A DNA stretch of 64,000 nt, taken from positions 11,014,001-11,078,000 of the forward strand of contig AP031354.1 of NCBI GenBank assembly GCA_037833965.1, read 5' to 3'. The notes under the pieces are model-generated. The model searched no databases, had not been told where the DNA came from, and saw only the letters and a list, made by a program, of their open reading frames with translations. Shown in pieces: positions 3,001 through 62,335 of the stretch (position 1 is its first letter; each line of letters starts with the position of its first letter). Position numbers and translations under genes: made by a program. Source of the stretch: Marchantia polymorpha subsp. ruderalis (Eukaryota > Streptophyta > Marchantiopsida > Marchantiales > Marchantiaceae).

Positions 3001-3121
3001 CTCCTGTGTGGCGACGACGAGAATGGTCCGCAGCCAGCAGATGGATGCGCGCGGCGCGCACAAGAGATTGGAATCGCGAATTCAAGAATGGGACGCTCTC
3101 CGCCGCCCGGTCGAAGGTCAT
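1..3121 (-). CDS. LTR-encoded coiled-coil protein, copy A (3' end outside window)
   Basis: The frame opens at an ATG at 3121 and stays open to the window edge (about 1,040 codons visible). It corresponds to the 1,050-codon frame of LTRs B-D minus one five-residue SPVHR-type repeat unit. For the domain description see the copy at 11173-14325. The product is unknown. The frame lies wholly inside U3 of the 3' LTR of the first array element, so it could be read from the 3' end of that element's RNA or from an unseen promoter in the leader. Confidence 0.8.
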   Translation of the reverse strand, partial: MTFDRAAESVPFLNSRFQSLVRAARIHLLAADHSRRRHTGDFLLIEGEVSARDLELRAIRVCRERKKRGQCGSRMSGRANPRNAMTRPSRLRMVPLRLPQNGLRAFEERLIARKLDFLLWGWNYICANMVREWLEPQGPPSRGLRPHVDRWIVQDWAQALGRCAGMPGHLLFDSESIKVTKQEEAQFVELFKTGRSTKNGYRTRDYKDRFRRTLSAALMQLLQPHRACYITLWQVSFVECVIEGTPIHWASILHRVMRQHAFEEKGGTLNHLSPFLINFYRQRNCLTAAELEHFPPLSIDHPGKYVRENEVDTDAEESPTSTPSRRRDEGRHTPAARVPRKRRWREESEEEQHQEPSAPIRPRPLCEPYSRPKQKARRLVLPADSADTATIATEIGSASPERREEARTTAGATGHAATSSGERPPTGQGPPELPRAMRTDVPFAHRRTSADGRASADRRTQVDVDLRLRVGRSSPPVHRRSPVHRSPVNRTPPHVPPVHRQESPPFQRRKGKEPAEEPPTRHRPSGPDPPAHHAPQFAPSAPGPSSRGDTSRERAEAAPSAESPPIDAPSAVGPIGQGTSGVRPPAMSPSAIDVRGATPAADKAPAHAPAHGPGTAPTDRSREQQTEERSDCQRDEISMRDAQSNPAQPPSAQSPPATDDRGREDAVDHQQARDGDAARIHSPSALDILATSSEAAAVPSQAAHVEDVQPHSGQSPTQSMATEILHSDDDDGGSTEEMSGAEDTEEEEEEIVGAPAAALSEQVIPLLRYLDRKVDKYADPLQPGSYIELVRRRTRTKVHTSKLLARVDQELRDLKEKHECLWGQYKLNQKFYKHSEKMKDEKLGELTKEQVKVKEALNSEQAQNRILSEELVRQTRLLEQCQLARQADEELIRRLQSECGELRAQRAEAESQLVTIEEDRRKEADRTKVETARRVAHCLKGYAHWEVKAQEKLTLREFELRAAGLLSGDSRSRRKVAKKLEAFLSKAQDTMSALEGEVSAALQRLGLRSRAEEWQGRELVRGSRPRRRRSTGSAECSVAW
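1622..1696. repeat. In-frame palindromic repeat cluster in the LTR gene
   Basis: Three perfect copies of the 12-bp palindrome CCTGTGCACAGG (1622-1633, 1667-1678, 1685-1696) plus a degenerate copy lie in the LTR gene, where they encode PVHR-type repeats on the minus strand. The 15-bp spacing keeps frame. LTRs B-D have one more unit and the plus-strand LTR at 46271-46370 has more again, so the block expands and contracts in coding units. Confidence 0.85.
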
Positions 3122-4404: not shown

Positions 4405-7236
4405 TCACATGTGGTATTTCTTCAACCGCCACCCGTTCACTCGGGTGCCTAACAAATCGCCGGCCAGGTCCGCAAGTTGGATGGATCCATTCGGGAAGAC
4501 TTCGACAACCCTGTAAGGTCCCATCCACCTTAGGTGCAGTTTGCCTGGGAATCTGGCATGCCTGCTGTCGTAGAGCAATGCCAAATCACCTGCCCGCAGG
4601 AGTACCGGTTTGATCTTTTTATCGTATCTCTCCTTTCGGCGGAGCTGGATTTTCCTGGTGCGATCTTCGGCGTCTCTTCTCCGCTCATCCAGCAGCATGA
4701 CCTCCTGTAACCTGTAGAGCTGACTCTCCTCTGCGCCCATCCTCTGCAAATCCATCGTTCGATGGGTGGGTACTTCAAATTCGATTGGGAGGATCGGGTG
4801 TTGCCCATACACCAGAAAGTATGGTGTCTGTTTGGTCGTGATCTTCTCAGCTGTGCGGTACGCCCATAGAGCGGCTGCTAGCTTCGTATCCCAGTCGTGA
4901 GCGTGATTCACCGTGACCTTGAGTAGTATTTTACACAGCAGACCATTGGACTTCTCCGTCAGTCCATTTGCCTTGGGATTGTATGGAGTAGTCTTCCGGT
5001 GCTTGATGTGGAAATACCGTGTCAGATCTTCGATGATCTGATTCAGAAAATGCGTGCCCCGGTCGCTGACTAGTTCTAAGGGACATCCGTAGCGTGTGAT
5101 GATCGACTCAAACAAGAATGCTGCCACTGTGGCAGCATCATCCTTTCTGGTGGCTCTGGCCTCTACCATTTTGGTGGCGTAGTCCGTTGCTACCAGAATG
5201 TAGCGCCTTCGTGTACTTCTAGTCACTGGTTGTATGGGCCCTACAAAGTCAATACCCCACTTTTCGAAAGGTGCTAGAGGCATGATGGGAGTCAGAGGCC
5301 AGCGTGTTGTAGGCGTCGGTCTCCCCGTCCTCTGGCAACTGTCGCACTTGCGGATGTAATCGAGAACATCCTTAAACATGGTCGGCCACCAATACCCCGC
5401 GTTTAGGATCTTTGTGACCGTGTTCCTGGTGGCATAGTGTCCACCCGCCTCCTCTGTATGCATCGCACTCACTATTCTTGGTACTTCTGATTCCTCCAGG
5501 CATCTGCATAAGCGCTCATCCGCCATTTTCTTGAACAAAACCCCCTGCTGGAGTTGATACGGGCCTGCCTTATGAATAAAGACAGTTCGCTGTTCCAAAT
5601 CCATGCCCTCGGGGCACTGGAGGGTTAACAGATATCGATATAGGTCGGCATAGCGGGACTCATGTCCTGCAGACAACTGAAATAACTCTTCATCTGGAAA
5701 ATCGTCCACCAATTCCTCCTCTGTCGGCTGGGTCCATAATCGGGACAAGTAATCCGCATTTTCGTGGTGCACCCCTTTCCTGGTCTGGACTGTGTAGGTG
5801 AACTCTTGTAGTAACAACACCCACCTGGCGATTCGACCGGATAGGTCGGCTTTCTTGACTAGGTGTTGCAATGCGTAGTGGTCCACATGGAACACAAACT
5901 CGTAACAGATTAGGTAGTGACGGAACTTCTTACAGGAGTATACCATCCCCAACGCTTCTCTCTCCGTCGTGGTGTACTTCCGCTCTGCTAGAGACAGCTG
6001 TCGGCTCGCGAAGTAGATCGGGTAGTCCTTTTTGTTGTCATCCTTTTGACTCAGTACTACACCGATGGCGAATGCCGAAGTGTCAACGTAAACATGGAAT
6101 GGTCGATTCCAGTCTGGACTCCTTAGTACGGGAGCAGTCGTGAGTTTCGCTTTCAGAGCTTCAAATGCTGTCTGCTGGTTCGCACCCCAAGCATAAGGCT
6201 CGTCCTTCTTCAACAACTTGGTCAGGTCCGCCGCCAGTATTGCATACATGTGTATGAATCTTCGGTAGTAGCCCACATGACCCAGGAATGCTCGCAGCTC
6301 TCTTAGATTCGTGGGTGGCTCAAGCTCGAGTATAACCTTGACCTTCTCGATGTCCACCGCAATGCCTTCTGCCGAGACCCGATGACCCAACAAGATCCCA
6401 CTAGTCATGAAGAAAAAGCACTTCTCGGGATGCAGTGATAAACTGCTCTCTCTACATTTATCGAAGGTCTGCTTCAAGTGACTTAGGTGTTCAGACCGCT
6501 TCCCAAAGACACAGAAGTCATCTATGAATATCTCCAGGAACTTCCTCAGTTGTTCCTGAAAGATATTGGTCATCATCCGTTGAAAGGTGGCAGGCGCGTT
6601 GCACAGACCGAAAGGCATCTTGTGGTATGCGTAAGTTCCCCAGTCGGTTGTGAACGTAGTTTTATCCTTGTCCTGTTCACGGATAGACACCTGATTGTAA
6701 CCTGAGAACCCATCCAGGAAGCTATAACATTCATGTCCTGCGACATGGTCTAGAATGGCATCCGTGAATGGTAACGGGTGATGATCCTTGCGTGTTGCTG
6801 CATTCAACTTCCGGAAATCCTGACACACTCGTATCTTACCCGTCAACTTCTTAGGTACGATAACAATCGGCGACACCCACTCGCTGCTGAGCACAGGATA
6901 AATAATACCAGCGCTCAAGTACTTATCTATCTCCTCTTTCACTAGCAAGGAGTACTTTGGGTTGAGGCGATACTGGCGCTGTCGTATGGGTACTGAGTCG
7001 TCCAGTAAATCGATACGGTGTTCCCCATATCGTGCGGGTATCCCCTTCATGTCTTCGATCTTCCAGGCGAAGACGTCGACATAGTGGCTAAGGAACGCCT
7101 GTACTTTCCTTAGCTCGTCTCCTCTCACTGCGCTTGATACCTTCAAGCATTTGCCGGGACTGAGTTGTACTTCATGACAGTCACTAGGGTCGACAATGCC
7201 CTCAGTGTGACTCGTCTCACTCCTTCCCAGTCCCAC
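4405..7236 (-). CDS. pol: pol (reverse transcriptase-RNase H-integrase), unit A
   Basis: The frame has 943 codons. Reverse transcriptase spans about residues 95-330 with FLDGFSGYNQ, MPFGLCNAPATFQ and an FIDD active-site box near 237-240. RNase H spans about 375-500 (VYVDTS, TEREAL, HVDH, ENADYLSR). Integrase follows with an HHCC zinc module (H593, H600, C631, C634) and the DDE triad at about D663, D725 and E761. The C-terminus has LLYDSR, FPGKL and VNGWRLKKY, typical of Athila/Tat-type plant elements; no chromodomain and no second RNase H are seen. The frame has no early ATG (the listed start is GTG; the first ATG is near codon 63), so translation probably continues from protease by read-through. 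It ends 37 bases before the LTR. Confidence 0.93.
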   Translation of the reverse strand: MGLGRSETSHTEGIVDPSDCHEVQLSPGKCLKVSSAVRGDELRKVQAFLSHYVDVFAWKIEDMKGIPARYGEHRIDLLDDSVPIRQRQYRLNPKYSLLVKEEIDKYLSAGIIYPVLSSEWVSPIVIVPKKLTGKIRVCQDFRKLNAATRKDHHPLPFTDAILDHVAGHECYSFLDGFSGYNQVSIREQDKDKTTFTTDWGTYAYHKMPFGLCNAPATFQRMMTNIFQEQLRKFLEIFIDDFCVFGKRSEHLSHLKQTFDKCRESSLSLHPEKCFFFMTSGILLGHRVSAEGIAVDIEKVKVILELEPPTNLRELRAFLGHVGYYRRFIHMYAILAADLTKLLKKDEPYAWGANQQTAFEALKAKLTTAPVLRSPDWNRPFHVYVDTSAFAIGVVLSQKDDNKKDYPIYFASRQLSLAERKYTTTEREALGMVYSCKKFRHYLICYEFVFHVDHYALQHLVKKADLSGRIARWVLLLQEFTYTVQTRKGVHHENADYLSRLWTQPTEEELVDDFPDEELFQLSAGHESRYADLYRYLLTLQCPEGMDLEQRTVFIHKAGPYQLQQGVLFKKMADERLCRCLEESEVPRIVSAMHTEEAGGHYATRNTVTKILNAGYWWPTMFKDVLDYIRKCDSCQRTGRPTPTTRWPLTPIMPLAPFEKWGIDFVGPIQPVTRSTRRRYILVATDYATKMVEARATRKDDAATVAAFLFESIITRYGCPLELVSDRGTHFLNQIIEDLTRYFHIKHRKTTPYNPKANGLTEKSNGLLCKILLKVTVNHAHDWDTKLAAALWAYRTAEKITTKQTPYFLVYGQHPILPIEFEVPTHRTMDLQRMGAEESQLYRLQEVMLLDERRRDAEDRTRKIQLRRKERYDKKIKPVLLRAGDLALLYDSRHARFPGKLHLRWMGPYRVVEVFPNGSIQLADLAGDLLGTRVNGWRLKKYHM

Positions 7237-7239: not shown

Positions 7240-7248
7240 TAATTGCTA
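7240..7248 (-). promoter_or_regulatory. Probable read-through signal at pro/pol junction, unit A
   Basis: The protease frame ends in TAG followed by CAATTA, the UAG-CARYYA context that allows leaky termination in tobacco mosaic virus and related plant viruses. Pol continues in the same frame and lacks a nearby ATG. Read-through of a gag(-pro) terminator is a known LTR-retroelement strategy (murine leukaemia virus). Its use here is inferred from context and conservation in all four internal regions. Confidence 0.7.
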
Positions 7249-8472
7249 TTCGTCTTCCGGCTGAATAGCTTCCGTCTCTTCTTCTTCTTCCACCGAACAG
7301 CAGGCAACGAATCCTACGAAGTAATCGGATTCGGTACCACTGGAATCCGATCGCGCGGTCGACTCACTGTCCTCGCCCGATGTGTAACCTGCACTTGTCG
7401 ATGGGGTCTCTCCTTCGTGCCTGACCCTATTCCAGGGCACCGTAATGGTTTTGGTCGGTTCCGAAGGGTGAGGGAACTTAAGGCGATGTCTTCGCCAATC
7501 ACATCTGACTTGTGCACCATATAGCCATGGTCGCCCGAGCAGAACGTCATAGCCCTGCTTCATCATCGGCTGAAGGATGATATACGTCAACCGAAAGTCC
7601 GCACCCCCGATGGTTGTCTTGACATTGCGCAGCATACCTGCAGGCATTCTCCGCGTCTGATCCGCTAATCTCAACACACGCTTCGAGGGTTCGTATTGAC
7701 TGAACCCCAAGGCTCTCGCTGTATCCTCCGTCATTATGTTGACTCCTGATCCAGAGTCGATTGGCACTCTGCGTACACAACATCCTGCTATCTCCACATC
7801 GATCTCGGGTGGCCCTTGGTCTTCGCTCTCCACTTGATATACTTGAGAGGATGTGGATGCGCGCGGCTTCCGCGGATGCCGTAGCGAAAGCATCAACATT
7901 CTCCGATACGTCTTATTGTCCTCCAAGAGCTGCTTGAACGTAATGTTCACTTTTCGACTCCCGAGATCTTCAACCAAGTCATAGTGGGCGCGTTGGGGCG
8001 CCGGGGTCGGCGACGCTCTGCGAGGTTCCACGGTGGCTGCCAACTTCGCCCCAAGGGAGGATGTCAAGTCTGGCCGCGGTGGGTCCTTTTGCGTGCGGAT
8101 CGCTTCCTTCAACAGGTTGGTTACCTCGTTGCGGATATCCGGAGCATAGTCCCGTTTCAGTAGGCGCACTGGCTCGTCCTCGACTGCTGTCTGGGGGCGC
8201 ACTGCTGGTGCCTCCCGCGTAGCCGAAGACTTCCGAGCAGGTCGCGAGTCGGACTTGCTGGATGTCTTCTCCTTTCCTTTTCCCGTCCGGTCGGCGGTTC
8301 TCCGTTCGTGCTTGCGAGTGTCACGCTCTTGCTCCTTGGATTTCTTGGAGCTACGAGTTTCGACCCGTGCGCACATAACCTCTTCAGCCGGCCATTCTTC
8401 GTCTTCGCCATCCCCGTCTGAACCTACTTCGACCTGGTTAACTTGCACGTCCTCCTTGGCAGGAGTGTTCAC
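7246..8472 (-). CDS. pro: Aspartic protease region, unit A
   Basis: This region has 408 codons. The first half is charged and low in complexity. The retropepsin-like part has IDSGSGVNIM as the active-site block (near residues 235-245), a hydrophobic middle, and DVLLGRPWLYG as the second conserved block. The tail is acidic and ends at the read-through signal. It follows gag and precedes pol in one common frame, the usual gag-pro-pol order of Ty3/gypsy elements. Confidence 0.88.
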   Translation of the reverse strand: MNTPAKEDVQVNQVEVGSDGDGEDEEWPAEEVMCARVETRSSKKSKEQERDTRKHERRTADRTGKGKEKTSSKSDSRPARKSSATREAPAVRPQTAVEDEPVRLLKRDYAPDIRNEVTNLLKEAIRTQKDPPRPDLTSSLGAKLAATVEPRRASPTPAPQRAHYDLVEDLGSRKVNITFKQLLEDNKTYRRMLMLSLRHPRKPRASTSSQVYQVESEDQGPPEIDVEIAGCCVRRVPIDSGSGVNIMTEDTARALGFSQYEPSKRVLRLADQTRRMPAGMLRNVKTTIGGADFRLTYIILQPMMKQGYDVLLGRPWLYGAQVRCDWRRHRLKFPHPSEPTKTITVPWNRVRHEGETPSTSAGYTSGEDSESTARSDSSGTESDYFVGFVACCSVEEEEETEAIQPEDE

Positions 8473-8475: not shown

Positions 8476-10077
8476 TCATACCACTGGCCGAGGGACTGGT
8501 GGCTGATCACACTCTGGCGCAGTGTGCCCGACCTTCTTGCAATTACTACATGTCGGAGCATAATCGTTTCGCCTTTTTGGATGGGGACACTGCGGTGAGA
8601 AGTGCCCAGCTTCCCCGCAATTATAACAAGCTCGCGGTGGCGGTGGGTCAAACGTCCCTGGAGGTGCTCTCCGCCTCACAGGTACCGTAGTGGCCCGATC
8701 CACCGGAATATATCGTGGGACTTGCATTGCTGAAACTGCAGGAGGGGTAGGCACCGACTGGACGGCGTAGGCTGTCTCTTCGCTAGCCTCTCCATAGTAC
8801 TGAGGGTGCTCTCCATAGTACGGTTGCGCCCACTCTACTGCGTTGACTGGATATGACGGCCGGGTGGTAAGGCACTCGGTGTTTGCATGTCCCACCGCCC
8901 CGCACGTAGTACACCATAAGTTCGCTCGCACTCTCCCGGGTGATTTTCTGCGATCATGCCCGCCTACCACTTGAACCTTGAGATCGGCGAAGTCCTTCAC
9001 CAGGGTCTCCATCTTCGAAGCTATATCTCCCGGCGCTCTGTCCGTAGTCACTCGTCGGATGCCCTTTTTCTTTGCTGACCCATGCTTCTTCCTCTTCTTC
9101 TCCTCCTCCGACGATGAGGTTTCCTCTTCTTCGGATGAAGAACGGTTCTCGTCCGAAGACGATTCCTCCGATGACGGAGTTGTACCTCTACGCCGTCTTC
9201 GCCCTCCTTTCGGTTTGCGCTCCTTCGACTCCCGTCTCTCTCTCCCTCTTCGGTTGAGAGTGGAAGTTTCGAAGGCTTCTGCCGATGCAATCACATCCTC
9301 AATAGTGTCGCACTTGCTGCGTCGGCAAAAAGTCTCCATCTCCCGAGTTAAACCGGTCACGTACCAATCCACAGCTTGTTGTACCGAGAAAGGGGACCCT
9401 GGTCCTGTTTTCGGTATTCTGTCGAGGAGGTCCAGAAATCTCTCAGTGTAGTCACGCAGACTCTCCTTCTTCTCTCGCTGCAAATTACGTAACTTCGTCA
9501 AAACCCGGCTGTCGTAGCCGAGCTCGCGAAAGCGACGAAGGAACTTCTCCTTCAGCTGGACCCATGTTGTCAACCCAGTCGGATCGATGCTCTCGTGATT
9601 ATACCAACTCCTCGCTTTCTTCCGCAGAAGGCTTGGAAAGATCCTTAGTCGGTCGTCGTCTGCGATCTCGCGATTGGCAATAGACACCGACTCGAATAAC
9701 TTGATGTATGAATCTGCATCGTCGTCATCCCCACTTCCTTTGTACTTCGGGTAGGAATGTTTAGTAATCGGCTGAGGTAGCCGCACATTGGCTTGTCCGT
9801 CCGCCATCAGTGTGTCTGTCGACGGTCCTCGGGCGGTCGGTTCTACTTCACTAGGCGGGTCCGTGCAAGGAATACCTAGTAGAACTGTAAGCACCAAGTT
9901 TGGTTCCGAGTCGCCGGGGGTAGGTTCCCCAAGGATGTCGGCCGAACTAGGCTTAGGTACTCTTCTTGGTGTTTTCTTGTTTTGACGCCGTGTCTCTTCC
10001 ACGGCCTTCTCTGAATCTCGTCGGAACTTGCGGACAGCCCTAGCACTTAGATTGCTCCCGCCAGCCCCAGTCGACAT
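8476..10077 (-). CDS. gag: gag capsid/nucleocapsid region, unit A
   Basis: This region has 533 codons from an ATG 64 bases downstream (in element sense) of the primer site. Residues about 100-250 form a retrotransposon Gag capsid domain (ARSWYNHE, LKEKFLRRF, LRNLQREKKESLRDYTERF). A basic stretch and a serine/glutamate-rich stretch follow (about 280-345). The nucleocapsid part has three CCHC knuckles: CTTCGAVGHANTEC, CYNCGEAGHFSPQC and CSNCKKVGHTAPEC. Three knuckles are more than most elements carry. The product should package RNA in cytoplasmic virus-like particles. Confidence 0.92.
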   Translation of the reverse strand: MSTGAGGSNLSARAVRKFRRDSEKAVEETRRQNKKTPRRVPKPSSADILGEPTPGDSEPNLVLTVLLGIPCTDPPSEVEPTARGPSTDTLMADGQANVRLPQPITKHSYPKYKGSGDDDDADSYIKLFESVSIANREIADDDRLRIFPSLLRKKARSWYNHESIDPTGLTTWVQLKEKFLRRFRELGYDSRVLTKLRNLQREKKESLRDYTERFLDLLDRIPKTGPGSPFSVQQAVDWYVTGLTREMETFCRRSKCDTIEDVIASAEAFETSTLNRRGRERRESKERKPKGGRRRRRGTTPSSEESSSDENRSSSEEEETSSSEEEKKRKKHGSAKKKGIRRVTTDRAPGDIASKMETLVKDFADLKVQVVGGHDRRKSPGRVRANLWCTTCGAVGHANTECLTTRPSYPVNAVEWAQPYYGEHPQYYGEASEETAYAVQSVPTPPAVSAMQVPRYIPVDRATTVPVRRRAPPGTFDPPPPRACYNCGEAGHFSPQCPHPKRRNDYAPTCSNCKKVGHTAPECDQPPVPRPVV

Positions 10078-10121: not shown

Positions 10122-10141
10122 TGTCCCCGGCAGCGGCGCCA
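10122..10141 (-). other. Primer binding site, unit A
   Basis: The minus strand reads TGGCGCCGCTGCCGGGGACA, 22 bases inside the internal region. It is one base from the TGGCGCCGTTGCCGGGGA primer site usual in Athila and Tat elements of plants, and it would pair with the 3' end of a host tRNA (tRNA-Arg is usually cited for Tat/Ogre). It marks the end of the upstream LTR. Confidence 0.88.
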
Positions 10142-10262
10142 AAAAGAAGTTGTCGGCTTCTTATGTAATAACCCACTAAAGGCTAAAACTGCAATATAGT
10201 GGTAGAAAGGTCGAACCCACAGGGACAGAGGAACACACAGGGTACAAAGTGTCACGTTTTAA

Positions 10263-10319
10263 CAGACTATTGAGGAGTTTGAATTCTCAGGCGACTGTCA
10301 CTCCCAGAAATACTGCAAG
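10263..10319 (-). repeat. Duplicated module in R-U5, copy 1
   Basis: This 57-bp module resembles 10672-10727 at about 85%. Both contain GAGTTTGAATTCTCAGGC and CCCAGAAATACT, and both are followed by GCAGCGTAAC within 100 bases. It is an internal direct duplication about 410 bases apart, retained in every LTR of the family seen here, including the old solo LTR. Confidence 0.8.
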
Positions 10320-10361
10320 TGTCCACTCGGAGCGCACTCGGAGGTCGCACAGTGCAGCGTA

Positions 10362-10381
10362 ACACACACACACACACACAC
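10362..10381. repeat. (AC)10 microsatellite in LTR B
   Basis: This is a dinucleotide tract in the R-U5 region. LTR D has (AC)9, the plus-strand LTR has (GT)15 (48791-48820), and the solo LTR has a longer tract interrupted by one G. It accounts for the 2-base difference in array period. Confidence 0.9.
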
Positions 10382-10671
10382 CTGAAACTACAGAAACACA
10401 ACCCAGAGATCCGTTAGGACCTCTACTTCAAGATTTCAGGGGGAAAGTCTCTCACGAGCACACTCGGCAAAGCTGCGGGCAGTGACTTCCAACTCCGGCT
10501 TTTACAACGCTTCCACTAGCTTGCTGCTAGTGTAGGAAACCCGGTTTGGACTACCTACTTCGGATCGAAGTCACTCAGACGCGGTGAACAACACTCTCAA
10601 CTCACAAAACGCGCAGAGAACACAGGTCCACACTGAAGGACTCACTGTGAAACGTTCCAGTAACACAACAA

Positions 10672-10727
10672 CAGTCTATTGAAGAGTTTGAATTCTCAGG
10701 CACTTGTCATTCCCAGAAATACTACAG
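10672..10727 (-). repeat. Duplicated module in R-U5, copy 2
   Basis: This is the second copy of the 57-bp module described at 10263-10319. It differs at roughly eight positions, so the duplication predates the divergence of the LTR copies in this window. Confidence 0.8.
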
Positions 10728-11107
10728 GGGTTACCCTCAAGGCACCTGCTGCAGCGTAACCTGAATTTACAACCAAGGCTTACACGAAGTGGCAAAACTT
10801 CACTTTGGCATTCAGGGGAAAAATCCCAAGGAGTACAATCAGAAAGGAACACTCGAAGGTGTAGGGGCGAAACTGTTCAAGTATCTAACTAGTCACTGGC
10901 TCTGAGCATCGGCAGTCACCCGCAGGTGCCGATCCGAACTACTCAAGTCTCTAACCAATGTACTAGCTCTGAACATTCGGCCGAAGGCCTTCAGCTACAA
11001 AATGCGGAACGCTAAGTTGTAACTCCTCGTGCGTGGTGACAGAACTCAAGGACACAAACACGCAAAGGAAATGGGTTCCTGATCTGCACTTCTGATGGGA
11101 AAGAACC

Positions 11108-11124
11108 CCAGGCAAAACGCCTGG
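11108..11124 (-). promoter_or_regulatory. Hairpin just downstream of the LTR TATA box
   Basis: A perfect 6-bp stem CCAGGC/GCCTGG with a 5-base loop begins three bases past the TATA box in element sense. It would therefore lie at or just before the predicted start of the RNA. The array and plus-strand LTRs keep both arms. The old solo LTR has a changed version near 59060. Confidence 0.6.
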
Positions 11125-11126
11125 AA

Positions 11127-11136
11127 CTATTTTATA
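11127..11136 (-). promoter_or_regulatory. TATA box of the genomic RNA promoter, LTR B
   Basis: The minus strand reads TATAAAATAG, 36 bases beyond the stop of the LTR gene. It is the best core-promoter match in the LTR and sets U3/R near 11100. The LTR gene is therefore upstream of the promoter in the 5' LTR. The same site is at 22331-22340, 33533-33542, 39407-39416 and 48036-48045. Confidence 0.75.
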
Positions 11137-11172
11137 CCTTCTAAATCCTAACTAGCACTACACTGCACTACG

Positions 11173-14100
11173 CTACACGCCTGCACGGAACCACGCTACA
11201 CTACACTCCGCGGAACCTGTACTACGTCTCCTGCGCGGCCGACTGCCGCGCACTAACTCCCTACCCTGCCACTCTTCCGCTCGACTGCGCAGTCCCAACC
11301 GCTGCAACGCCGCGGACACCTCCCCCTCGAGGGCAGACATGGTATCCTGTGCCTTCGAAAGAAAGGCCTCGAGCTTCTTCGCTACCTTCCGCCGACTCCT
11401 ACTGTCGCCTGACAACAACCCGGCTGCGCGCAATTCAAACTCACGCAGTGTGAGTTTCTCCTGCGCCTTCACTTCCCAGTGGGCGTAGCCCTTGAGACAG
11501 TGGGCGACTCGCCTCGCCGTCTCCACCTTCGTGCGATCCGCCTCCTTCCTGCGATCCTCTTCAATGGTCACTAATTGCGATTCGGCTTCAGCACGTTGCG
11601 CCCTCAATTCGCCACACTCTGACTGTAACCTGCGGATTAATTCTTCATCCGCCTGCCGTGCGAGCTGACATTGTTCCAACAACCGCGTCTGTCGCACGAG
11701 CTCCTCTGACAAAATCCGATTCTGGGCTTGCTCAGAGTTGAGTGCTTCCTTGACCTTCACCTGCTCCTTGGTGAGCTCGCCCAGTTTCTCATCCTTCATC
11801 TTCTCGGAGTGCTTGTAGAATTTCTGATTAAGCTTGTACTGTCCCCACAAGCACTCATGCTTCTCCTTCAAGTCCCTCAACTCCTGGTCCACTCTAGCTA
11901 ATAGCTTGCTGGTGTGGACTTTAGTGCGAGTCCTCCTGCGCACTAACTCGATGTAAGATCCCGGCTGGAGTGGGTCGGCGTATTTATCGACCTTGCGATC
12001 CAAGTACCGCAGCAACGGAATCACCTGCTCAGAGAGCGCCGCCGCCGGTGCTCCAACAATTTCCTCCTCCTCCTCCTCGGTGTCTTCTGCTCCTGACATT
12101 TCTTCCGTGGAGCCTCCGTCGTCATCATCCGAGTGGAGAATTTCAGTCGCCATTGATTGCGTCGGCGACTGCCCCGAGTGGGGCTGCACGTCCTCGACGT
12201 GTGCTGCCTGCGAAGGCACGGCTGCAGCCTCGCTGCTCGTCGCCAAAATGTCTAAGGCGGAAGGCGAATGTATCCGTGCGGCATCCCCGTCTCTCGCTTG
12301 TTGATGGTCTACCGCATCCTCTCTGCCTCTGTCGTCCGTCGCCGGAGGTGATTGAGCGGAGGGTGGCTGCGCGGGGTTGGATTGCGCATCGCGCATCGAG
12401 ATTTCATCCCGCTGACAGTCACTCCGCTCCTCCGTCTGCTGCTCCCTTGATCGGTCCGTGGGGGCTGTGCCCGGCCCGTGCGCAGGCGCATGTGCCGGCG
12501 CCTTGTCCGCCGCAGGCGTAGCGCCGCGGACATCTATCGCCGAAGGCGACATGGCCGGGGGCCGCACGCCCGATGTTCCTTGGCCTATAGGCCCTACCGC
12601 CGAAGGCGCATCTATCGGCGGACTTTCCGCCGACGGTGCGGCCTCCGCACGCTCTCTGCTCGTATCCCCTCGGCTCGAAGGCCCTGGCGCCGAAGGCGCG
12701 AATTGCGGCGCGTGGTGCGCCGGAGGGTCTGGCCCCGAGGGCCGGTGTCTCGTAGGCGGTTCTTCCGCCGGCTCCTTCCCCTTCCTACGTTGGAACGGGG
12801 GTGATTCTTGCCTGTGCACAGGCGGCACGTGTGGAGGTGTTCTGTTCACAGGCGACCTGTGCACAGGCGACCTGTGCACAGGCGAGCGCCTGTGCACAGG
12901 CGGACTGCTCCTTCCCACGCGTAAGCGTAGATCCACGTCCACTTGTGTTCGCCGGTCCGCGGAGGCTCGTCCGTCCGCGGAGGTTCGCCTGTGCGCAAAC
13001 GGAACATCTGTCCGCATCGCACGTGGTAACTCCGGAGGCCCTTGGCCCGTAGGCGGCCTCTCTCCCGACGAGGTTGCAGCGTGGCCCGTCGCTCCTGCGG
13101 TCGTCCGCGCTTCCTCTCGCCTCTCTGGCGACGCACTTCCTATCTCCGTCGCAATCGTCGCCGTGTCTGCACTGTCAGCTGGCAACACCAGTCTGCGTGC
13201 CTTCTGCTTCGGCCGGCTGTATGGCTCGCACAGCGGCCGCGGTCGAATGGGAGCAGAGGGTTCTTGATGCTGCTCCTCTTCGGACTCTTCCCTCCATCGC
13301 CGCTTCCGCGGCACTCGCGCTGCAGGGGTGTGTCTCCCTTCGTCTCTCCGTCTCGATGGGGTAGAAGTCGGGGACTCCTCCGCATCAGTGTCGACCTCGT
13401 TCTCCCGCACATACTTCCCGGGATGGTCGATGGACAATGGCGGAAAATGTTCAAGCTCCGCCGCTGTCAAACAATTCCGCTGTCGATAAAAATTGATGAG
13501 GAAAGGAGAAAGATGGTTTAGAGTTCCCCCCTTCTCCTCAAACGCGTGCTGTCGCATCACCCTGTGCAGGATGCTCGCCCAGTGAATGGGAGTTCCCTCG
13601 ATGACGCACTCCACAAAAGAGACCTGCCACAATGTGATGTAGCAGGCGCGGTGCGGCTGCAGTAATTGCATCAGCGCCGCGGACAAAGTCCGGCGAAATC
13701 GATCTTTGTAATCACGGGTCCTGTACCCATTCTTGGTAGACCTCCCGGTCTTGAACAGCTCCACAAATTGCGCCTCTTCTTGCTTGGTCACCTTGATGCT
13801 CTCGCTGTCGAAAAGGAGATGCCCTGGCATGCCAGCACATCTTCCCAACGCCTGCGCCCAATCTTGGACTATCCACCGGTCAACATGCGGACGCAATCCG
13901 CGCGAGGGTGGTCCCTGTGGCTCTAGCCACTCGCGCACCATATTCGCGCAGATGTAATTCCATCCCCATAGCAAGAAATCGAGCTTTCTTGCTATTAAGC
14001 GCTCTTCGAAAGCGCGCAGCCCGTTCTGCGGCAGGCGAAGTGGCACCATCCGCAATCTGCTCGGTCTCGTCATTGCGTTCCTGGGGTTCGCTCGCCCGCT

Positions 14101-14325
14101 CATTCTACTTCCACACTGTCCGCGTTTCTTTCTCTCTCGGCAAACTCTAATCGCTCTCAATTCCAAATCACGCGCACTCACTTCTCCCTCAATCAACAAG
14201 AAATCTCCTGTGTGGCGACGACGAGAATGGTCCGCAGCCAGCAGATGGATGCGCGCGGCGCGCACAAGAGATTGGAATCGCGAATTCAAGAATGGGACGC
14301 TCTCCGCCGCCCGGTCGAAGGTCAT
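11173..14325 (-). CDS. LTR-encoded 1,050-residue coiled-coil protein, copy B
   Basis: The frame is intact from an ATG at 14325. Residues 1-310 look globular and are the most conserved part (LPLRLPQNGLRAFEERL near 95-110, LLWGWNYIC near 118-126, an aromatic/helical block 225-285). This block loosely recalls the plant transposon-associated domain found in Gag- or Env-side frames of plant gypsy elements, but I cannot confirm that. About 315-720 is proline/serine/arginine-rich and includes SPVHR repeats near 475-510. An acidic run (SDDDD, EEEEEE) lies near 725-760 and a long charged coiled coil spans about 800-1000. I see no signal peptide or membrane span, so it is not an obvious envelope protein. 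Function is unknown; oligomerisation through the coiled coil is likely. Confidence 0.82.
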   Translation of the reverse strand: MTFDRAAESVPFLNSRFQSLVRAARIHLLAADHSRRRHTGDFLLIEGEVSARDLELRAIRVCRERKKRGQCGSRMSGRANPRNAMTRPSRLRMVPLRLPQNGLRAFEERLIARKLDFLLWGWNYICANMVREWLEPQGPPSRGLRPHVDRWIVQDWAQALGRCAGMPGHLLFDSESIKVTKQEEAQFVELFKTGRSTKNGYRTRDYKDRFRRTLSAALMQLLQPHRACYITLWQVSFVECVIEGTPIHWASILHRVMRQHAFEEKGGTLNHLSPFLINFYRQRNCLTAAELEHFPPLSIDHPGKYVRENEVDTDAEESPTSTPSRRRDEGRHTPAARVPRKRRWREESEEEQHQEPSAPIRPRPLCEPYSRPKQKARRLVLPADSADTATIATEIGSASPERREEARTTAGATGHAATSSGERPPTGQGPPELPRAMRTDVPFAHRRTSADGRASADRRTQVDVDLRLRVGRSSPPVHRRSPVHRSPVHRSPVNRTPPHVPPVHRQESPPFQRRKGKEPAEEPPTRHRPSGPDPPAHHAPQFAPSAPGPSSRGDTSRERAEAAPSAESPPIDAPSAVGPIGQGTSGVRPPAMSPSAIDVRGATPAADKAPAHAPAHGPGTAPTDRSREQQTEERSDCQRDEISMRDAQSNPAQPPSAQSPPATDDRGREDAVDHQQARDGDAARIHSPSALDILATSSEAAAVPSQAAHVEDVQPHSGQSPTQSMATEILHSDDDDGGSTEEMSGAEDTEEEEEEIVGAPAAALSEQVIPLLRYLDRKVDKYADPLQPGSYIELVRRRTRTKVHTSKLLARVDQELRDLKEKHECLWGQYKLNQKFYKHSEKMKDEKLGELTKEQVKVKEALNSEQAQNRILSEELVRQTRLLEQCQLARQADEELIRRLQSECGELRAQRAEAESQLVTIEEDRRKEADRTKVETARRVAHCLKGYAHWEVKAQEKLTLREFELRAAGLLSGDSRSRRKVAKKLEAFLSKAQDTMSALEGEVSAALQRLGLRSRAEEWQGRELVRGSRPRRRRSTGSAECSVAWFRAGV

Positions 14326-15571
14326 GGTCGGCTCTTGGTCGTGAAGAACGTCTCACTTGATGGCCGCGCCGGCTGTACGCTGGAACGGTCTTCGCTCTCA
14401 CGCGCGGCTTCACGCTCCGCCGTCGTCGATTAAACTCTCACGCTCGAATTGGCGGATTTGAACTCCGCGAGCGTGTCACCCTGCGGACATGGGGGCGTAG
14501 CGCCGAAGGCGAGTTTTCCGCCTTGCGCGGTACACTTGTTCGTACCGCCCTTCGGCCAATCTCCTTCTGCCTTGACGCGTGCGTCCGCATGTCGGACAAA
14601 AATTCAACTCCTGCCTGTGCGCAGGCAGGGGCCTCGGCGGATTCTCCGCCGGTGCGGAACTTGAACATTCTCCTGTGCACAGGCGTTCGCCTGTGCGCAG
14701 GCGAATTCCGTCCGCGGCGCTGCGCTGGCGCGGAAGGCGTTGACCGTGGTCAGCCGTCTCCGTCCAGTCTGTCCGTTCCTTGTCTCTCCGTCGGCGCTTC
14801 CGCCGCCGCAACTCCGTCCGTCCAAGAGCGCATCAACCCGTGCCGTCCGCACGGTCCGTACCTATTGGTTTACTCTGGCGGCTCTTCCGACGTACGCTGC
14901 GCTGCGCTGGCGCGGAAGGCGCCGTACACTTTCTACCTCACAAGGCGCATTTCTAGGGCCCAAGGCGGATTCTCCGCCGACGCCGAAGTGCCTGTGCACA
15001 GGCGTTCGCCTGTGCGTAGGCGGACTTCGCGCCTTCCCTAACCCTACTTCGCCTGTGCACAGGCGAACGCCTTCGTCCGCGCATAGGACAAAACTTGAAT
15101 CCCCCTTCCGCGTAGGCGGAATTCGCGCCGGTGGCGAACTCCTTCCGCCGTAGGCGACCGCCTCCGTTTCTTCCAGTAGCGATAACTCCCTAAGTCCTCG
15201 TCCGTTCCAAGCGCTCTTGGGCTCGTTAGAATCAGCGCGTCGAGCTCTTTCCAACCGGACCCTAACTTGGTCAAGGCGCCCGAGGGTTGACCTAATTACG
15301 GGGGTTTCCCTACAGCCGCGGACGCAACCTCCGAAGGCGGGTTTTGCGCCTTGCGCCGTAGAGATCCTAACTGCGGAGCTCGCAGGGAGGGTGGTGCCTG
15401 TCCTTACTGCGGCACCCCAAATCCCAGATTCTACAAGATCCCTCGAGAATCCCCGCGATCTTCCGGATTCACTCTGTTTTGATGTACCGAAGGCTATTTA
15501 CAATGCTGCCAGGGTACAGTTTTCCAAAAATGTTTTAATTTCCTCAAAATTGCCAAAAGTGGGGTACCACA
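14326..15571 (-). other. Non-coding U3 leader of LTR B
   Basis: This has the same layout as the leader of LTR A, with an AT-rich LTR start, then the palindrome field (about 14611-15066), then the LTR gene. No gene is seen. The open frames of up to 172 codons on the plus strand here change little between copies only because the copies are near-identical. Confidence 0.7.
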
Positions 15572-15584
15572 TGCCCCCCTCCTC
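15572..15584 (-). other. Polypurine tract, unit B
   Basis: The tract reads GAGGAGGGGGGCA on the minus strand, directly before LTR B at 15571, identical to unit A. Confidence 0.88.
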
Positions 15585-18443: not shown

Positions 18444-18452
18444 TAATTGCTA
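18444..18452 (-). promoter_or_regulatory. Probable read-through signal, unit B
   Basis: The TAG-CAATTA context at the pro/pol junction is as in unit A. Confidence 0.7.
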
Positions 18453-21367: not shown

Positions 21368-24300
21368 TGTAATAACCCACTAAAGGCTAAAACTGCAATA
21401 TAGTGGTAGAAAGGTCGAACCCACAGGGACAGAGGAACACACAGGGTACAAAGTGTCACGTTTTAACAGACTATTGAGGAGTTTGAATTCTCAGGCGACT
21501 GTCACTCCCAGAAATACTGCAAGTGTCCACTCGGAGCGCACTCGGAGGTCGCACAGTGCAGCGTAACACACACACACACACACACCTGAAACTACAGAAA
21601 CACAACCCAGAGATCCGTTAGGACCTCTACTTCAAGATTTCAGGGGGAAAGTCTCTCACGAGCACACTCGGCAAAGCTGCGGGCAGTGACTTCCAACTCC
21701 GGCTTTTACAACGCTTCCACTAGCTTGCTGCTAGTGTAGGAAACCCGGTTTGGACTACCTACTTCGGATCGAAGTCACTCAGACGCGGTGAACAACACTC
21801 TCAACTCACAAAACGCGCAGAGAACACAGGTCCACACTGAAGGACTCACTGTGAAACGTTCCAGTAACACAACAACAGTCTATTGAAGAGTTTGAATTCT
21901 CAGGCACTTGTCATTCCCAGAAATACTACAGGGGTTACCCTCAAGGCACCTGCTGCAGCGTAACCTGAATTTACAACCAAGGCTTACACGAAGTGGCAAA
22001 ACTTCACTTTGGCATTCAGGGGAAAAATCCCAAGGAGTACAATCAGAAAGGAACACTCGAAGGTGTAGGGGCGAAACTGTTCAAGTATCTAACTAGTCAC
22101 TGGCTCTGAGCATCGGCAGTCACCCGCAGGTGCCGATCCGAACTACTCAAGTCTCTAACCAATGTACTAGCTCTGAACATTCGGCCGAAGGCCTTCAGCT
22201 ACAAAATGCGGAACGCTAAGTTGTAACTCCTCGTGCGTGGTGACAGAACTCAAGGACACAAACACGCAAAGGAAATGGGTTCCTGATCTGCACTTCTGAT
22301 GGGAAAGAACCCCAGGCAAAACGCCTGGAACTATTTTATACCTTCTAAATCCTAACTAGCACTACACTGCACTACGCTACACGCCTGCACGGAACCACGC
22401 TACACTACACTCCGCGGAACCTGTACTACGTCTCCTGCGCGGCCGACTGCCGCGCACTAACTCCCTACCCTGCCACTCTTCCGCTCGACTGCGCAGTCCC
22501 AACCGCTGCAACGCCGCGGACACCTCCCCCTCGAGGGCAGACATGGTATCCTGTGCCTTCGAAAGAAAGGCCTCGAGCTTCTTCGCTACCTTCCGCCGAC
22601 TCCTACTGTCGCCTGACAACAACCCGGCTGCGCGCAATTCAAACTCACGCAGTGTGAGTTTCTCCTGCGCCTTCACTTCCCAGTGGGCGTAGCCCTTGAG
22701 ACAGTGGGCGACTCGCCTCGCCGTCTCCACCTTCGTGCGATCCGCCTCCTTCCTGCGATCCTCTTCAATGGTCACTAATTGCGATTCGGCTTCAGCACGT
22801 TGCGCCCTCAATTCGCCACACTCTGACTGTAACCTGCGGATTAATTCTTCATCCGCCTGCCGTGCGAGCTGACATTGTTCCAACAACCGCGTCTGTCGCA
22901 CGAGCTCCTCTGACAAAATCCGATTCTGGGCTTGCTCAGAGTTGAGTGCTTCCTTGACCTTCACCTGCTCCTTGGTGAGCTCGCCCAGTTTCTCATCCTT
23001 CATCTTCTCGGAGTGCTTGTAGAATTTCTGATTAAGCTTGTACTGTCCCCACAAGCACTCATGCTTCTCCTTCAAGTCCCTCAACTCCTGGTCCACTCTA
23101 GCTAATAGCTTGCTGGTGTGGACTTTAGTGCGAGTCCTCCTGCGCACTAACTCGATGTAAGATCCCGGCTGGAGTGGGTCGGCGTATTTATCGACCTTGC
23201 GATCCAAGTACCGCAGCAACGGAATCACCTGCTCAGAGAGCGCCGCCGCCGGTGCTCCAACAATTTCCTCCTCCTCCTCCTCGGTGTCTTCTGCTCCTGA
23301 CATTTCTTCCGTGGAGCCTCCGTCGTCATCATCCGAGTGGAGAATTTCAGTCGCCATTGATTGCGTCGGCGACTGCCCCGAGTGGGGCTGCACGTCCTCG
23401 ACGTGTGCTGCCTGCGAAGGCACGGCTGCAGCCTCGCTGCTCGTCGCCAAAATGTCTAAGGCGGAAGGCGAATGTATCCGTGCGGCATCCCCGTCTCTCG
23501 CTTGTTGATGGTCTACCGCATCCTCTCTGCCTCTGTCGTCCGTCGCCGGAGGTGATTGAGCGGAGGGTGGCTGCGCGGGGTTGGATTGCGCATCGCGCAT
23601 CGAGATTTCATCCCGCTGACAGTCACTCCGCTCCTCCGTCTGCTGCTCCCTTGATCGGTCCGTGGGGGCTGTGCCCGGCCCGTGCGCAGGCGCATGTGCC
23701 GGCGCCTTGTCCGCCGCAGGCGTAGCGCCGCGGACATCTATCGCCGAAGGCGACATGGCCGGGGGCCGCACGCCCGATGTTCCTTGGCCTATAGGCCCTA
23801 CCGCCGAAGGCGCATCTATCGGCGGACTTTCCGCCGACGGTGCGGCCTCCGCACGCTCTCTGCTCGTATCCCCTCGGCTCGAAGGCCCTGGCGCCGAAGG
23901 CGCGAATTGCGGCGCGTGGTGCGCCGGAGGGTCTGGCCCCGAGGGCCGGTGTCTCGTAGGCGGTTCTTCCGCCGGCTCCTTCCCCTTCCTACGTTGGAAC
24001 GGGGGTGATTCTTGCCTGTGCACAGGCGGCACGTGTGGAGGTGTTCTGTTCACAGGCGACCTGTGCACAGGCGACCTGTGCACAGGCGAGCGCCTGTGCA
24101 CAGGCGGACTGCTCCTTCCCACGCGTAAGCGTAGATCCACGTCCACTTGTGTTCGCCGGTCCGCGGAGGCTCGTCCGTCCGCGGAGGTTCGCCTGTGCGC
24201 AAACGGAACATCTGTCCGCATCGCACGTGGTAACTCCGGAGGCCCTTGGCCCGTAGGCGGCCTCTCTCCCGACGAGGTTGCAGCGTGGCCCGTCGCTCCT

Positions 24301-37977: not shown

Positions 37978-38238
37978 GTAGAGGTCCTAACGGATCTCTG
38001 GGTTGTGTTTCTGTAGTTTCAGGTGTGTGTGTGTGTGTGTTACGCTGTACTGTGCGACCTCCGAGTGCGCTCCGAGTGGACACTTGCAGTATTTCTGGGA
38101 GTGACAGTCGCCTGAGAATTCAAACTCCTCAATAGTCTGTTAAAACGTGACACTTTGTACCCTGTGTGTTCCTCTGTCCCTGTGGGTTCGACCTTTCTAC
38201 CACTATATTGCAGTTTTAGCCTTTAGTGGGTTATTACA
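37978..38238 (+). repeat. LTR 3'-end fragment (H1)
   Basis: This is the last 261 bases of a plus-strand LTR (including a GT tract), ending exactly at TTACA. On its left the array begins and on its right an LTR-gene fragment begins. The exact LTR terminus at 38238 fits the edge of an inserted LTR. It is a broken fossil piece. Confidence 0.85.
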
Positions 38239-47800: not shown

Positions 47801-47999
47801 CGATGCCTTTCTGTCGAAGGCACAGGATACCATGTCCGCTCTCGAAGTGGAGGTGTCCGCGGCATTGCAGCGTTTGGGACTGCGCTGTCGAGCGGAAGAT
47901 TGGCAGGGTAGGGAGTTAGTGCGCGGCAGTCGGCCGCGCAGGAGACGTAGTACAGGTTCCGCGGAGTGTAGTGTAGCGTGGTTCCGTGCAGGCGTGTAG
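44847..47999 (+). CDS. LTR-encoded coiled-coil protein, copy E
   Basis: This intact 1,050-codon frame has the same architecture as array copies and scattered substitutions, mostly in the N-terminal 80 residues and proline-rich middle. The 95-290 block and coiled coil are almost unchanged. The equal length despite several repeat-unit changes suggests in-frame indels only, as expected if the protein has been selected. Confidence 0.82.
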   Translation: MTFDRAAENVPFLNSRFQSLVRVARIHLLAAEHSRRRRTGDFLLIEGEVSARDLELRAIRVCRERKKRGQCGSRMSGRANPRNAMTRPSRLRMVPLRLPQNGLRAFEERLIARKLDFLLWGWNYICANMVREWLEPQGPPSRGLRPHVDRWTVQDWAQALGRCAGMPGHLLFDSESIKVTKQEEAQFVELFKTGRSTKNGYRTRDYKDRFRRTLSAALMQLLQPHRACYITLWQVSFVECVIEGTPIHWASILHRVMRQHAFEEKGGTLNHLSPFLINFYRQRNCLTAAELEHFPPLSIDHPGKYVRENEVDTDAEESPTSTPSRRRDEGRHTPAARVPRKRRWREESEEEQHQEPSAPIRPRPLCEPYSRPKQKARRLVLPADSADTATIATEIGSASPERHEEARTTAGATGHAATSTGERPPTGQEPPELPRAMRTDVPFAHGRASADGRASADRRTQVDVDLRLRVGRSSPPVHRRSPVHRSPVHRSLVHRTPPHVPPVHRQESPPFQRRKGKEPAEEPPTRHRPSGPDPPAHHAPQFAPSAPGPSSRGDTSRERAEAAPSAGSPPIDAPSAVGPIGQGTSGVRPPAMSPSAIDVRGATPAADKAPANAPAHGPGIAPTDRSREQQTEERSDCPRDEISMRDAQSNPAQPPSARSPSAADDGGREDAVDNQQARDGDAARVHSPSALDILATSSEAAAVPSQAAHVDDVQPHSGQSPTQSMATEILHSDDDDGGSTEEMSGAEDTEEEEEEIVGAPAAALSEQVIPLLRYLDRKVDKYADPLQPGSYIELVRRRTRTKVHTSKLLARVDQELKELKEKHACLWGQYKLNQKFYKHSEKMKDEKLGELTKEQVKVKEALISEQAQNRILSEELVRQTRLLEQCQLARQADEELIRRLQSECGELRAQRAEAESQLVIIEEDRRKEADRTKVETARRVAHCLKGYAHWEVKAQEKLTLREFELRAAGLLSGDSRSRRKVAKKLDAFLSKAQDTMSALEVEVSAALQRLGLRCRAEDWQGRELVRGSRPRRRRSTGSAECSVAWFRAGV
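46271..46370. repeat. Expanded in-frame palindrome cluster, copy E
   Basis: A run of CTGTGCACAGG units spaced mostly 15 bases encodes PVHR repeats, with more and partly degenerate units than in the array copies. Confidence 0.8.
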
Positions 48000-61557: not shown

Positions 61558-62335
61558 GGTCGGCTCTCGGTCGTGAAGGTCGAATCACTTGATGGCCGCG
61601 CCGGCTCCGCGCTATAACGGCCTCCTCTCTCACGCGCGGCTTCACGCTCCGCCGACGCCGACTTAACTCACGCGTTCGAATTGGCAATTTGAACTCCGCT
61701 AGCGTACTACGCCGCGGACAAGGGTGCGCAGCGCCAAAGGCGGATTTCTCGCCTTGCGCGCTACACTCGTTCATACTAATCTCTGGCCAATCCCTCTCCG
61801 CCGAAGGCGATCGTCCGCGCATCGGACAAAAGTTGAACTCCCTTCTGTGTAGGCGGAATCCCCGGCGGAATCTCCGCCGGCGCGGAACTTCATCTGCCTG
61901 TGCGTAGGCGCTCGCCTACGTGTAGGCGAATTCCGTCCGCCTATCAAATGTTCGTCCGCGCTGCTGCGCTGGCGCCAAAGGCGATGACTGCGGTCAACAG
62001 ACTCCGTCCAGTCCGTCCATTTCTCTCGCCTCTCCGTCGGCGCTCTTGTCGCCGTAACCCCGTCCGGCTGAAGGCGCACTCATCCGTTCCGTCCGTACAG
62101 TCCGTACGGTCCGTACGGATTTTACTACTCCGTTGGGTCCTCGCCCGTCCGCGCTGCTGCGCTGGCGCCGAAGGCGCCGTACAATTTCCAACCCCGAAGG
62201 CGCATTTCCCGCCGACGCCGAAGCGCATGTGCGTAGGCGAGCTTCGCTCGTCCGCCTGCGCAGAGGTTTTAATCCTTCCCGCCTACGAGTAGGCGACATT
62301 CGCAGCGGACATCCCGCCGACGTCAAACCCTATTT

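What the first reader, a model, noticed from the sequence alone, without database searches (positions are those of the whole stretch)
10164..15571. A 5.4-kb LTR that carries its own 1,050-codon gene in U3
Polypurine tract at 15572-15584 followed by TGTGG, and TTACA at 10164 followed by a TGGCGCC primer site, fix the LTR ends; three independent non-array junctions (43586, 58100, 62815) confirm the same termini. The frame is therefore inside the LTR and upstream of the TATA box. A gene in U3 is known from mouse mammary tumour virus (sag) and partly from nef, but I know of no well-described plant case with a frame this long. It is intact in three array LTRs and in LTR E, and open to the window edge in LTR A.
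Basis: partly seen in the sequence, partly recalled or inferred. Interest (0 to 1): 0.85.

Follow-up and report, generated by a model that had tools for sequence, protein, structure and literature searches.

The report
Large conserved gene inside retrotransposon LTR
In the liverwort Marchantia, an old group of Ty3-type jumping genes keeps a large, naturally selected protein gene inside the repeats at its ends, so that lone repeats left behind in the genome can still carry it.

Summary
The LTR is 5,408 bp (10164-15571, minus strand), ends TGTGG...TTACA, and carries a 1,050-codon frame (11173-14325) upstream of its TATA box (11131-11136). The window's own genome (241 Mb, 9 contigs; Marchantia by protein matches) allowed the refuting test: of 20 insertions with both ends in hand, 17 have a perfect 5-bp duplication at exactly these ends, 2 match 4 of 5, and 1 (the window's old solo LTR) has none. 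The frame is a real gene: dN/dS 0.18 against the window's second element and 0.22 against the old LTR, near gag and protease; 0 of 2,000 neutral simulations were as conserved. Constraint appears only from about codon 85, so the protein is probably about 966 aa, with a conserved N-domain, a Pro/Ser/Ala-rich linker and a coiled coil. It also lies inside the LTR in divergent families: 65-72% protein identity (2 loci, duplications), about 50% (12 loci), and, weakly, an outgroup with 51% gag identity (5 of 6 loci). Solo LTRs keep it. Its function is inferred: most likely a nuclear accessory protein. The papers searched gave no described plant case in what I read.

The parts
10164..15571 (-). LTR2, 5,408 bp, TGTGG...TTACA
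   Evidence: ends fixed by duplications of dispersed copies
11173..14325 (-). U3 frame, 1,050 codons (P0001); constrained part 11173-14073 (codons 85-1050)
11410..11907 (-). predicted long coiled-coil helix (residues 807-972)
   Evidence: AlphaFold2 C-domain model, mean pLDDT 77, residues about 815-934 above 90
13390..14073 (-). conserved N-terminal domain (residues 85-312); model all-helical but not reliable
   Evidence: alignment A4; pLDDT 44
14326..15571 (-). U3 upstream of the frame, 1,246 bp, with 6 ATGs and many short palindromes
11131..11136 (-). only TATAAA-type site found in the LTR
10164..11172 (-). [quoted passage not shown]
10670..10726 (-). copy 1 of a ~55-nt conserved motif in R/U5
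10248..10316 (-). copy 2 of the same motif
10129..10141 (-). primer binding site TGGCGCCGCTGCC, 22 nt after the LTR end
15572..15584 (-). polypurine tract
8476..10077 (-). gag (Retrotrans_gag, CCHC knuckles)
7246..8472 (-). protease
4405..7236 (-). RT-RNase H-integrase, Ty3/gypsy order, no chromodomain hit
22377..25529 (-). same U3 frame in LTR3 (21368-26775)
33579..36731 (-). same U3 frame in LTR4 (32572-37977)
2..3121 (-). same U3 frame in LTR1 (A), cut by the window edge; no stop beyond it (L008)
44847..47999 (+). same U3 frame in LTR E (43586-49018), 97% identical protein
58100..62815 (-). old divergent solo LTR with a decayed copy of the frame (3 stops), same termini, no target duplication
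37978..37982 (.). right copy of the 5-bp duplication (GTAGA on +) that flanks the whole tandem array; the left copy lies outside the window

Best explanation
This is an accessory gene of an old Ty3/gypsy LTR-retrotransposon lineage of Marchantia, lying wholly in U3. SHOWN: the LTR ends; the gene between the LTR start and the TATA box; purifying selection; the same place in divergent families; frames without stops in solo LTRs. INFERRED: the gene once stood between pol and a short 3' LTR, as accessory genes often do in other plant elements, and was taken into U3 when a polypurine tract upstream of it became the start of U3. Because the TATA box lies downstream of the gene, only the 3'-LTR copy should be in genomic RNA. 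Six upstream ATGs argue that it is read either from a local promoter in U3 or from a spliced RNA. The product is most likely a nuclear, self-associating coiled-coil protein that acts on the element's RNA or transcription (as CERV of Cer1 does), not an envelope protein.
For: Ends: 17 of 20 insertions with both ends in hand perfect, 2 with 4 of 5; in the main family 11 of 11 (7 solo LTRs, 4 insertions with more than one LTR). Selection: LTR2 vs E5 55 synonymous, 33 nonsynonymous changes, 0 premature stops, 0 indels over 1,050 codons, omega median 0.185 (bootstrap 0.120-0.269), vs old solo LTR 0.218 (0.175-0.270); controls gag 0.153, PR 0.143, RT-INT 0.073; CpG-aware neutral simulation mean 57 nonsynonymous codons, minimum 41, 0 of 2,000 at or below 33. 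Divergent families. Of the 24 gag relatives listed, 5 contain a stretch of this protein; in the 4 whose layout I looked at it lies ahead of gag. 0 of 1,032 windows look transmembrane; several basic clusters; long coiled coil.
Against: No RNA or protein data: expression, splicing and localisation are untested. One of 20 insertions (the window's own old solo LTR) has no duplication. Copies are capped lists ranked by protein score, which favours conserved ones (the LTR2-E5 and LTR2-solo comparisons are free of this). The N-domain could not be modelled (pLDDT 44), and no family or structure relative was found, so no homology supports the functional step. In the outgroup family 1 of 6 loci shows no trace of the gene, and 1 of the other 5 matches only a gene model of its own group.
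Confidence: 0.7

Rival explanations
1. The LTR ends are misplaced: the true LTR is short (TATA-R-U5 side) and the frame is an ordinary internal accessory ORF.
For: Plant accessory ORFs are described in the internal region (PMC7264820); the array alone cannot fix the ends; the window's own solo LTR lacks a duplication.
Against: 17 perfect and 2 near-perfect duplications of 20 at the long ends, with 8 of 11 main-family empty sites matching element sequence across the joint (one of them over 29 bases only); six non-array junctions in the window.
Confidence: 0.01
2. The frame is an accident of GC-rich sequence and codes for nothing.
For: GC 55-65% and high CpG lengthen random frames; no known domain; codons 1-84 do evolve as if non-coding.
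Against: Purifying selection over the rest, no indel in the frame between LTR2 and E5, protein-level conservation across families.
Confidence: 0.02
3. It is a host gene carried by the LTR, or now kept by the host from solo LTRs (domesticated).
For: Solo LTRs with frames free of stops exist (6 read whole); annotators call host proteins from it; variants private to the 6 solo LTRs are 24 nonsynonymous to 30 synonymous, below the neutral ratio, though these copies were chosen by protein score.
Against: The relatives whose surroundings I read lie in LTRs, and many listed copies carry stops; no single-copy host relative stood out in these capped lists; low dN/dS between elements is explained by selection on the elements.
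Confidence: 0.08
4. It is an envelope-like or cell-to-cell movement protein, as proposed for plant env-like ORFs.
For: In genomic RNA it follows pol, the place of env.
Against: No transmembrane-like segment; basic clusters and a coiled coil fit a nuclear or RNA-bound protein better.
Confidence: 0.07
5. It is a structural partner of Gag (particle or RNA packaging), not a nuclear regulator.
For: Coiled coil and basic regions could bind Gag or RNA; R/U5 is unusually conserved.
Against: Nothing here argues strongly against it. The N-domain showed no match to this family's gag; the only profile match came from gene models that contain this protein's own coiled coil.
Confidence: 0.15

Closest known systems
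Mouse mammary tumour virus sag (U3 gene; recalled)
   Same: A sense gene inside U3, so present in both LTRs.
   Different: Retrovirus of mice with an unrelated, much shorter protein (recalled, not compared here). Here a plant Ty3 element.
HIV nef and foamy virus bel genes (recalled)
   Same: Accessory genes reaching into U3.
   Different: Only partly in U3 (recalled); here the whole frame lies between LTR start and TATA box.
Accessory ORFs of Grande, RIRE2, Retand (PMC7264820 parts 1-2 of 3; PMC11963269 passages)
   Same: Plant Ty3 elements with an accessory protein; Grande's is nuclear, and some Retand ORFs match SMC- or Mis12-type domains.
   Different: Antisense, between pol and 3' LTR, mostly with Transposase_28; Retand LTRs are 315-1,194 bp. 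Here sense, in U3, no Transposase_28 hit.
Cer1 CERV of C. elegans (PMC10309623: abstract, outline, passages)
   Same: A nuclear protein with a predicted leucine zipper, needed for export of the element's genomic RNA; its C-terminal part comes from an ORF in the env place that has no obvious homology outside Caenorhabditis.
   Different: Made from a spliced mRNA that shares sequence with gag, and not placed in the LTR in what I read.
Rice Retrosat2 ORF0 (PMC3485330: passages)
   Same: LTR over 3.2 kb and an extra ORF of unknown function.
   Different: ORF0 is described as upstream of the gag-pol ORF; I saw no statement that it lies in the LTR.
[not shown]
   Same: Tat elements without the additional RNase H, reported in both Marchantia genomes studied; a plausible home for this element.
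   Different: No LTR gene is mentioned in what I read; membership by RT tree not tested.

Membership tests
Ty3/gypsy LTR retrotransposon | PR-RT-RH-INT order, PBS, PPT, 5-bp duplications | tested here: met
Chromovirus | chromodomain after integrase | tested here: not met
   none in the Pfam scan of the RT-INT frames at E up to 1
[not shown]
   no reference RT set at hand; the non-chromovirus pol and a tRNA-Asp-type PBS (recalled) are leads only
aRH-bearing Tat | second RNase H | tested here: not met
   only one RNase H region is hit, by the two overlapping RT_RNaseH models
U3-gene elements (MMTV-like organisation) | complete sense frame between LTR start and promoter | tested here: met
U3-gene elements (MMTV-like organisation) | expression from the 3' LTR by spliced or internal-promoter RNA | not testable with these tools
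   no RNA data
Retand/Grande accessory protein | Transposase_28 domain | tested here: not met
   two short places elsewhere in the genome, best E 0.888, under the cut-off (the control rang in 1 of 14 genomes, also under it, so the test is weak); none in the 34 proteins or fragments scanned
Retand/Grande accessory protein | antisense between pol and 3' LTR | tested here: not met
   sense and inside U3
Transposase_32 (PF20167) plant transposon proteins | domain match | tested here: inconclusive
   0 matches in the genome, but the control rang nowhere; none
env-like ORF | transmembrane segment | tested here: not met
   highest 19-residue Kyte-Doolittle mean 1.14

The most novel reading that the evidence does not exclude
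An old retrotransposon lineage has moved an essential accessory gene into its LTR, so that each LTR, solo ones included, is a stand-alone expression unit. LTR-LTR recombination, which normally deletes all genes of such elements, then spares this one, and a genome-wide pool of solo LTRs supplies the protein in trans to the complete elements.
Probability: 0.3. Interest if true: 0.85.

Novelty: new variant of a known kind. Interest (0 to 1): 0.72.

Why it matters
LTRs of plant elements are commonly treated as non-coding control regions, and this gene has been called as uncharacterised host proteins. Here a selected gene of about 966 codons has stayed in the LTR through the divergence of several families. 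It opens a direct test of whether solo LTRs, usually seen as dead remains, can keep serving the living elements, and of how a gene enters U3.

Tried and rejected
Fold search: not run, because the N-domain model was poor (pLDDT 44) and a single long coiled coil matches anything. PDB sequence search gave two chance-level hits. Pfam gave nothing consistent for the protein or its relatives. Rfam: no match in the window at gathering scores. The gag-profile match proved to be this protein's own coiled coil inside some gag gene models, not a shared domain. RNAalifold on the ~55-nt U5 motif (48 sequences): no support (-1.99 against column-shuffled mean -0.60, minimum -3.33). Private against shared codon variants in 17 copies (private 64 nonsynonymous, 74 synonymous, 1 stop; shared 25, 63) was not used as evidence for or against host selection, because copies were chosen by protein score. 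PF20167 search uninformative; PF03078 unanswered.

Rows dropped before the duplication count: fetched LTRs with only one usable end, or with internal sequence on one side and no partner fetched (L006, L011/L012, L015/L016, L021, L022, L024, L025, L036, L038, L039, L040, L042, L044, L033's divergent copy, and the first LTR in L031). The window's solo LTR is counted as the 20th, without duplication. For the C3 insertion only the two ends were read; that it is one two-LTR element is inferred from two frames 11.2 kb apart and the shared duplication.

Full report
WHAT IS THERE. The window holds, on the minus strand, a head-to-tail array (period about 11.2 kb, copies 99.9% identical) of four LTRs and three internal regions, followed by nested fragments, an opposite-strand element E (43586-56943, broken) and an old solo LTR (58100-62815). 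Internal regions carry gag, protease and RT-RNase H-integrase in Ty3/gypsy order, a PBS 22 nt after the LTR end and a PPT right before the next LTR. Pol ends 37 nt before the LTR. The 5,408-bp LTR holds a frame of 1,050 codons (11173-14325), with 1,246 bp before it and the only TATA-type site found (11131-11136) and about 1 kb of R/U5 after it.

THE ENDS ARE PROVEN. Six non-array junctions in the window share the termini (37977, 38238, 41127, 43586, 58100, 62815). The window lies in a 241-Mb, 9-contig genome at C5:11014001-11078000. From it I fetched ends of dispersed copies. Counting the window's own solo LTR, 20 insertions have both ends in hand: 17 show a perfect 5-bp duplication, 2 match 4 of 5, and 1, the window's old solo LTR, has none. 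They are: in the main family 11 of 11 perfect (7 solo LTRs, one of them nested inside another element, and 4 insertions with more than one LTR, one of them the window's array as a whole); 2 of 2 divergent LTRs perfect; 6 LTRs of the most divergent tested family (4 perfect, 2 with one mismatch); and the old solo LTR. For 8 of the 11 main-family insertions the joined empty site matches element sequence across the joint, in one case over 29 bases only. LTRs with one usable end were left out and are listed under Tried and rejected.

THE FRAME IS A GENE. LTR2 against LTR E: 55 synonymous and 33 nonsynonymous changes, no premature stop, no indel in 1,050 codons, dN/dS 0.18; against the old solo LTR 0.22; bootstrap ranges 0.120-0.269 and 0.175-0.270. 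Controls in the same elements: gag 0.153, protease 0.143, RT-INT 0.073. The LTR is rich in CpG and CpG sites change faster, so I simulated neutral change with CpG-dependent rates taken from the non-coding U3: 88 changes gave a mean of 57 nonsynonymous codons, and 0 of 2,000 runs reached 33 or fewer; the chance of no stop was 0.043. Constraint is not uniform: against the old LTR, codons 1-84 have 12 synonymous and 38 nonsynonymous differences, codons 85-310 have 68 and 40, and 7 of 28 relatives' gene models begin exactly at codon 85. I therefore think that the protein starts at Met85. In the genome 44 copies were scored of 14,167 first-look candidates, and 39 of 44 have no stop; this list is ranked by score and so favours intact copies.

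THE PROTEIN. No Pfam match in P0001, and none shared by its relatives. A profile search scored 7,993 candidates and listed 28 relatives, 26 named Marchantia polymorpha subsp. ruderalis and 2 unnamed; its sensitivity is limited, so relatives elsewhere are not excluded. Layout: conserved N-domain (85-312; the model is helical but at pLDDT 44), a Pro/Ser/Ala-rich linker with basic and acidic stretches, then a long coiled coil (helix at residues 807-972, mean pLDDT of the C-domain model 77). No 19-residue window looks transmembrane.

IT IS OLD. In the solo LTR of the window the ORF is 16-21% different in DNA by region and the LTR termini are the same. Two LTRs with the ORF at about 65-72% protein identity have duplications TGAAA and ATCGC. 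A P0003-like copy on C9 matches this LTR at 80.6% from the end of the ORF through R/U5 to the last base. Of the 12 best-scoring loci of a P0005-like family (about 50% protein identity to P0001; 74 scored of 10,736 candidates), 12 have R/U5-like sequence right after the ORF, and in 11 the match reaches the LTR's last base; the 6 with both ends are 4.3-4.7 kb. In an outgroup with about 51% gag identity, the LTR end and leader lie just before gag in 6 of 6 loci, and in 5 of 6 a 25-36% identical match to the C-terminal part of this protein ends about 600 bp upstream of that LTR end; in one of the 5 it is seen only with a gene model of that same group. This last step is weak in sequence but consistent in place. 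In addition 5 of the 24 gag relatives contain a stretch of this protein; in the 4 whose layout I looked at (P0033, P0036, P0038, P0039) it lies ahead of gag, as expected if the gene lies upstream of gag in the 5' LTR.

HOW IT MAY WORK. The TATA box lies downstream of the gene, so the element's own RNA should hold only the 3'-LTR copy. Six ATGs precede the frame in U3, which disfavours plain scanning from far upstream; a local promoter in U3 or a spliced leader is more likely. Neither is shown. A gene in U3 exists twice per element and survives LTR-LTR recombination; six solo LTRs of the main family with duplications, read whole, carry frames without stops (C5:4617660, C9:19743785, C3:21041178, C8:18583840, C8:7556459, C8:9119444). 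Among known proteins the best functional parallel is CERV of Cer1, a nuclear protein with a predicted leucine zipper needed for export of genomic RNA (PMC10309623: abstract, outline and passages seen). Grande's accessory protein is nuclear, and some Retand ORFs match SMC- or Mis12-type domains (PMC7264820: parts 1 and 2 of 3 read; PMC11963269: passages). These are parallels, not homology: Transposase_28 gave no match over its cut-off and none in this protein. That the protein is nuclear is my inference from basic clusters and the parallels.

LIMITS. No RNA or protein data; the host name rests on protein matches (for example 100% over 477 residues of a gag relative named M. polymorpha) and on nine contigs; family counts are lower bounds from capped lists; one of 20 insertions lacks a duplication; RT phylogeny was not done.

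Noticed in passing
7240-7248, 18444-18452, 29648-29656 (minus) and 51934-51942 (plus): Protease and RT are separated by one in-frame UAG followed by CAA UUA, the context of the tobacco mosaic virus readthrough stop (recalled). Kept in all three array copies and in E; relatives P0031 and P0041 end at a corresponding place. Probably programmed readthrough to make Pol.
   Followed up: partly
8476 region and its copies at 19680 and 30884: All three array copies have a further in-frame stop between gag and protease; element E and relative P0031 are open there, so the gag-protease frame of the array looks broken.
   Followed up: yes
1-37977 (array; left end in L008): The whole array of four LTRs and three internal regions (about 39 kb) is flanked by one perfect 5-bp duplication, and its outer LTRs differ by 1 base and one 15-bp indel: a single recent insertion that was, or became, a tandem array.
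   Followed up: yes
10248-10316 and 10670-10726: A ~55-nt sequence occurs twice, about 410 nt apart, in R/U5 of the main and divergent families, and a weaker match is seen in the outgroup (L048, L052, L053). No support for RNA structure. Possibly a packaging or protein-binding site.
   Followed up: partly
14326-15571 and 12046-13395: Short palindromes such as CGCCTGTGCACAGGCG are in excess in non-coding U3 (15 against 1.5 expected) and in the linker part of the gene (15 against 2.6), slightly in its N-terminal part (4 against 0.9), and not in its C-terminal part, R/U5 or the internal region (1 against 0.8, 1 against 0.9, 7 against 7.3). They look like small inserted hairpins that also lengthened the linker.
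   Followed up: partly
L003/L008, L009/L010, L013/L014, L019/L007, L019/L020, L023, L026, L027; also L018: 8 of 11 main-family insertions lie in sequence of their own or a close sister family by the empty-site test, and a ninth (C9 solo, L018) lies in a P0003-like copy of the gene: perhaps a preference for their own kind of chromatin.
   Followed up: partly
10164-11172: R/U5 is about three times more conserved than non-coding U3 at non-CpG sites (0.97% against 3.09%, LTR2 against E5).
   Followed up: partly
P0036 (MARPO_0006s0274): One Marchantia gene model joins part of this U3 protein, a long charged repeat and gag: perhaps an annotation or splicing product of LTR and internal region.
   Followed up: no
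C4:10354060-10370680 and C6:24272060-24288700 (L011, L012, L015, L016): Two further places show LTR pairs with internal sequence on both outer sides (PPT before the first LTR; PBS or a cut leader after the second), so tandem arrays like the window's seem not to be rare.
   Followed up: no
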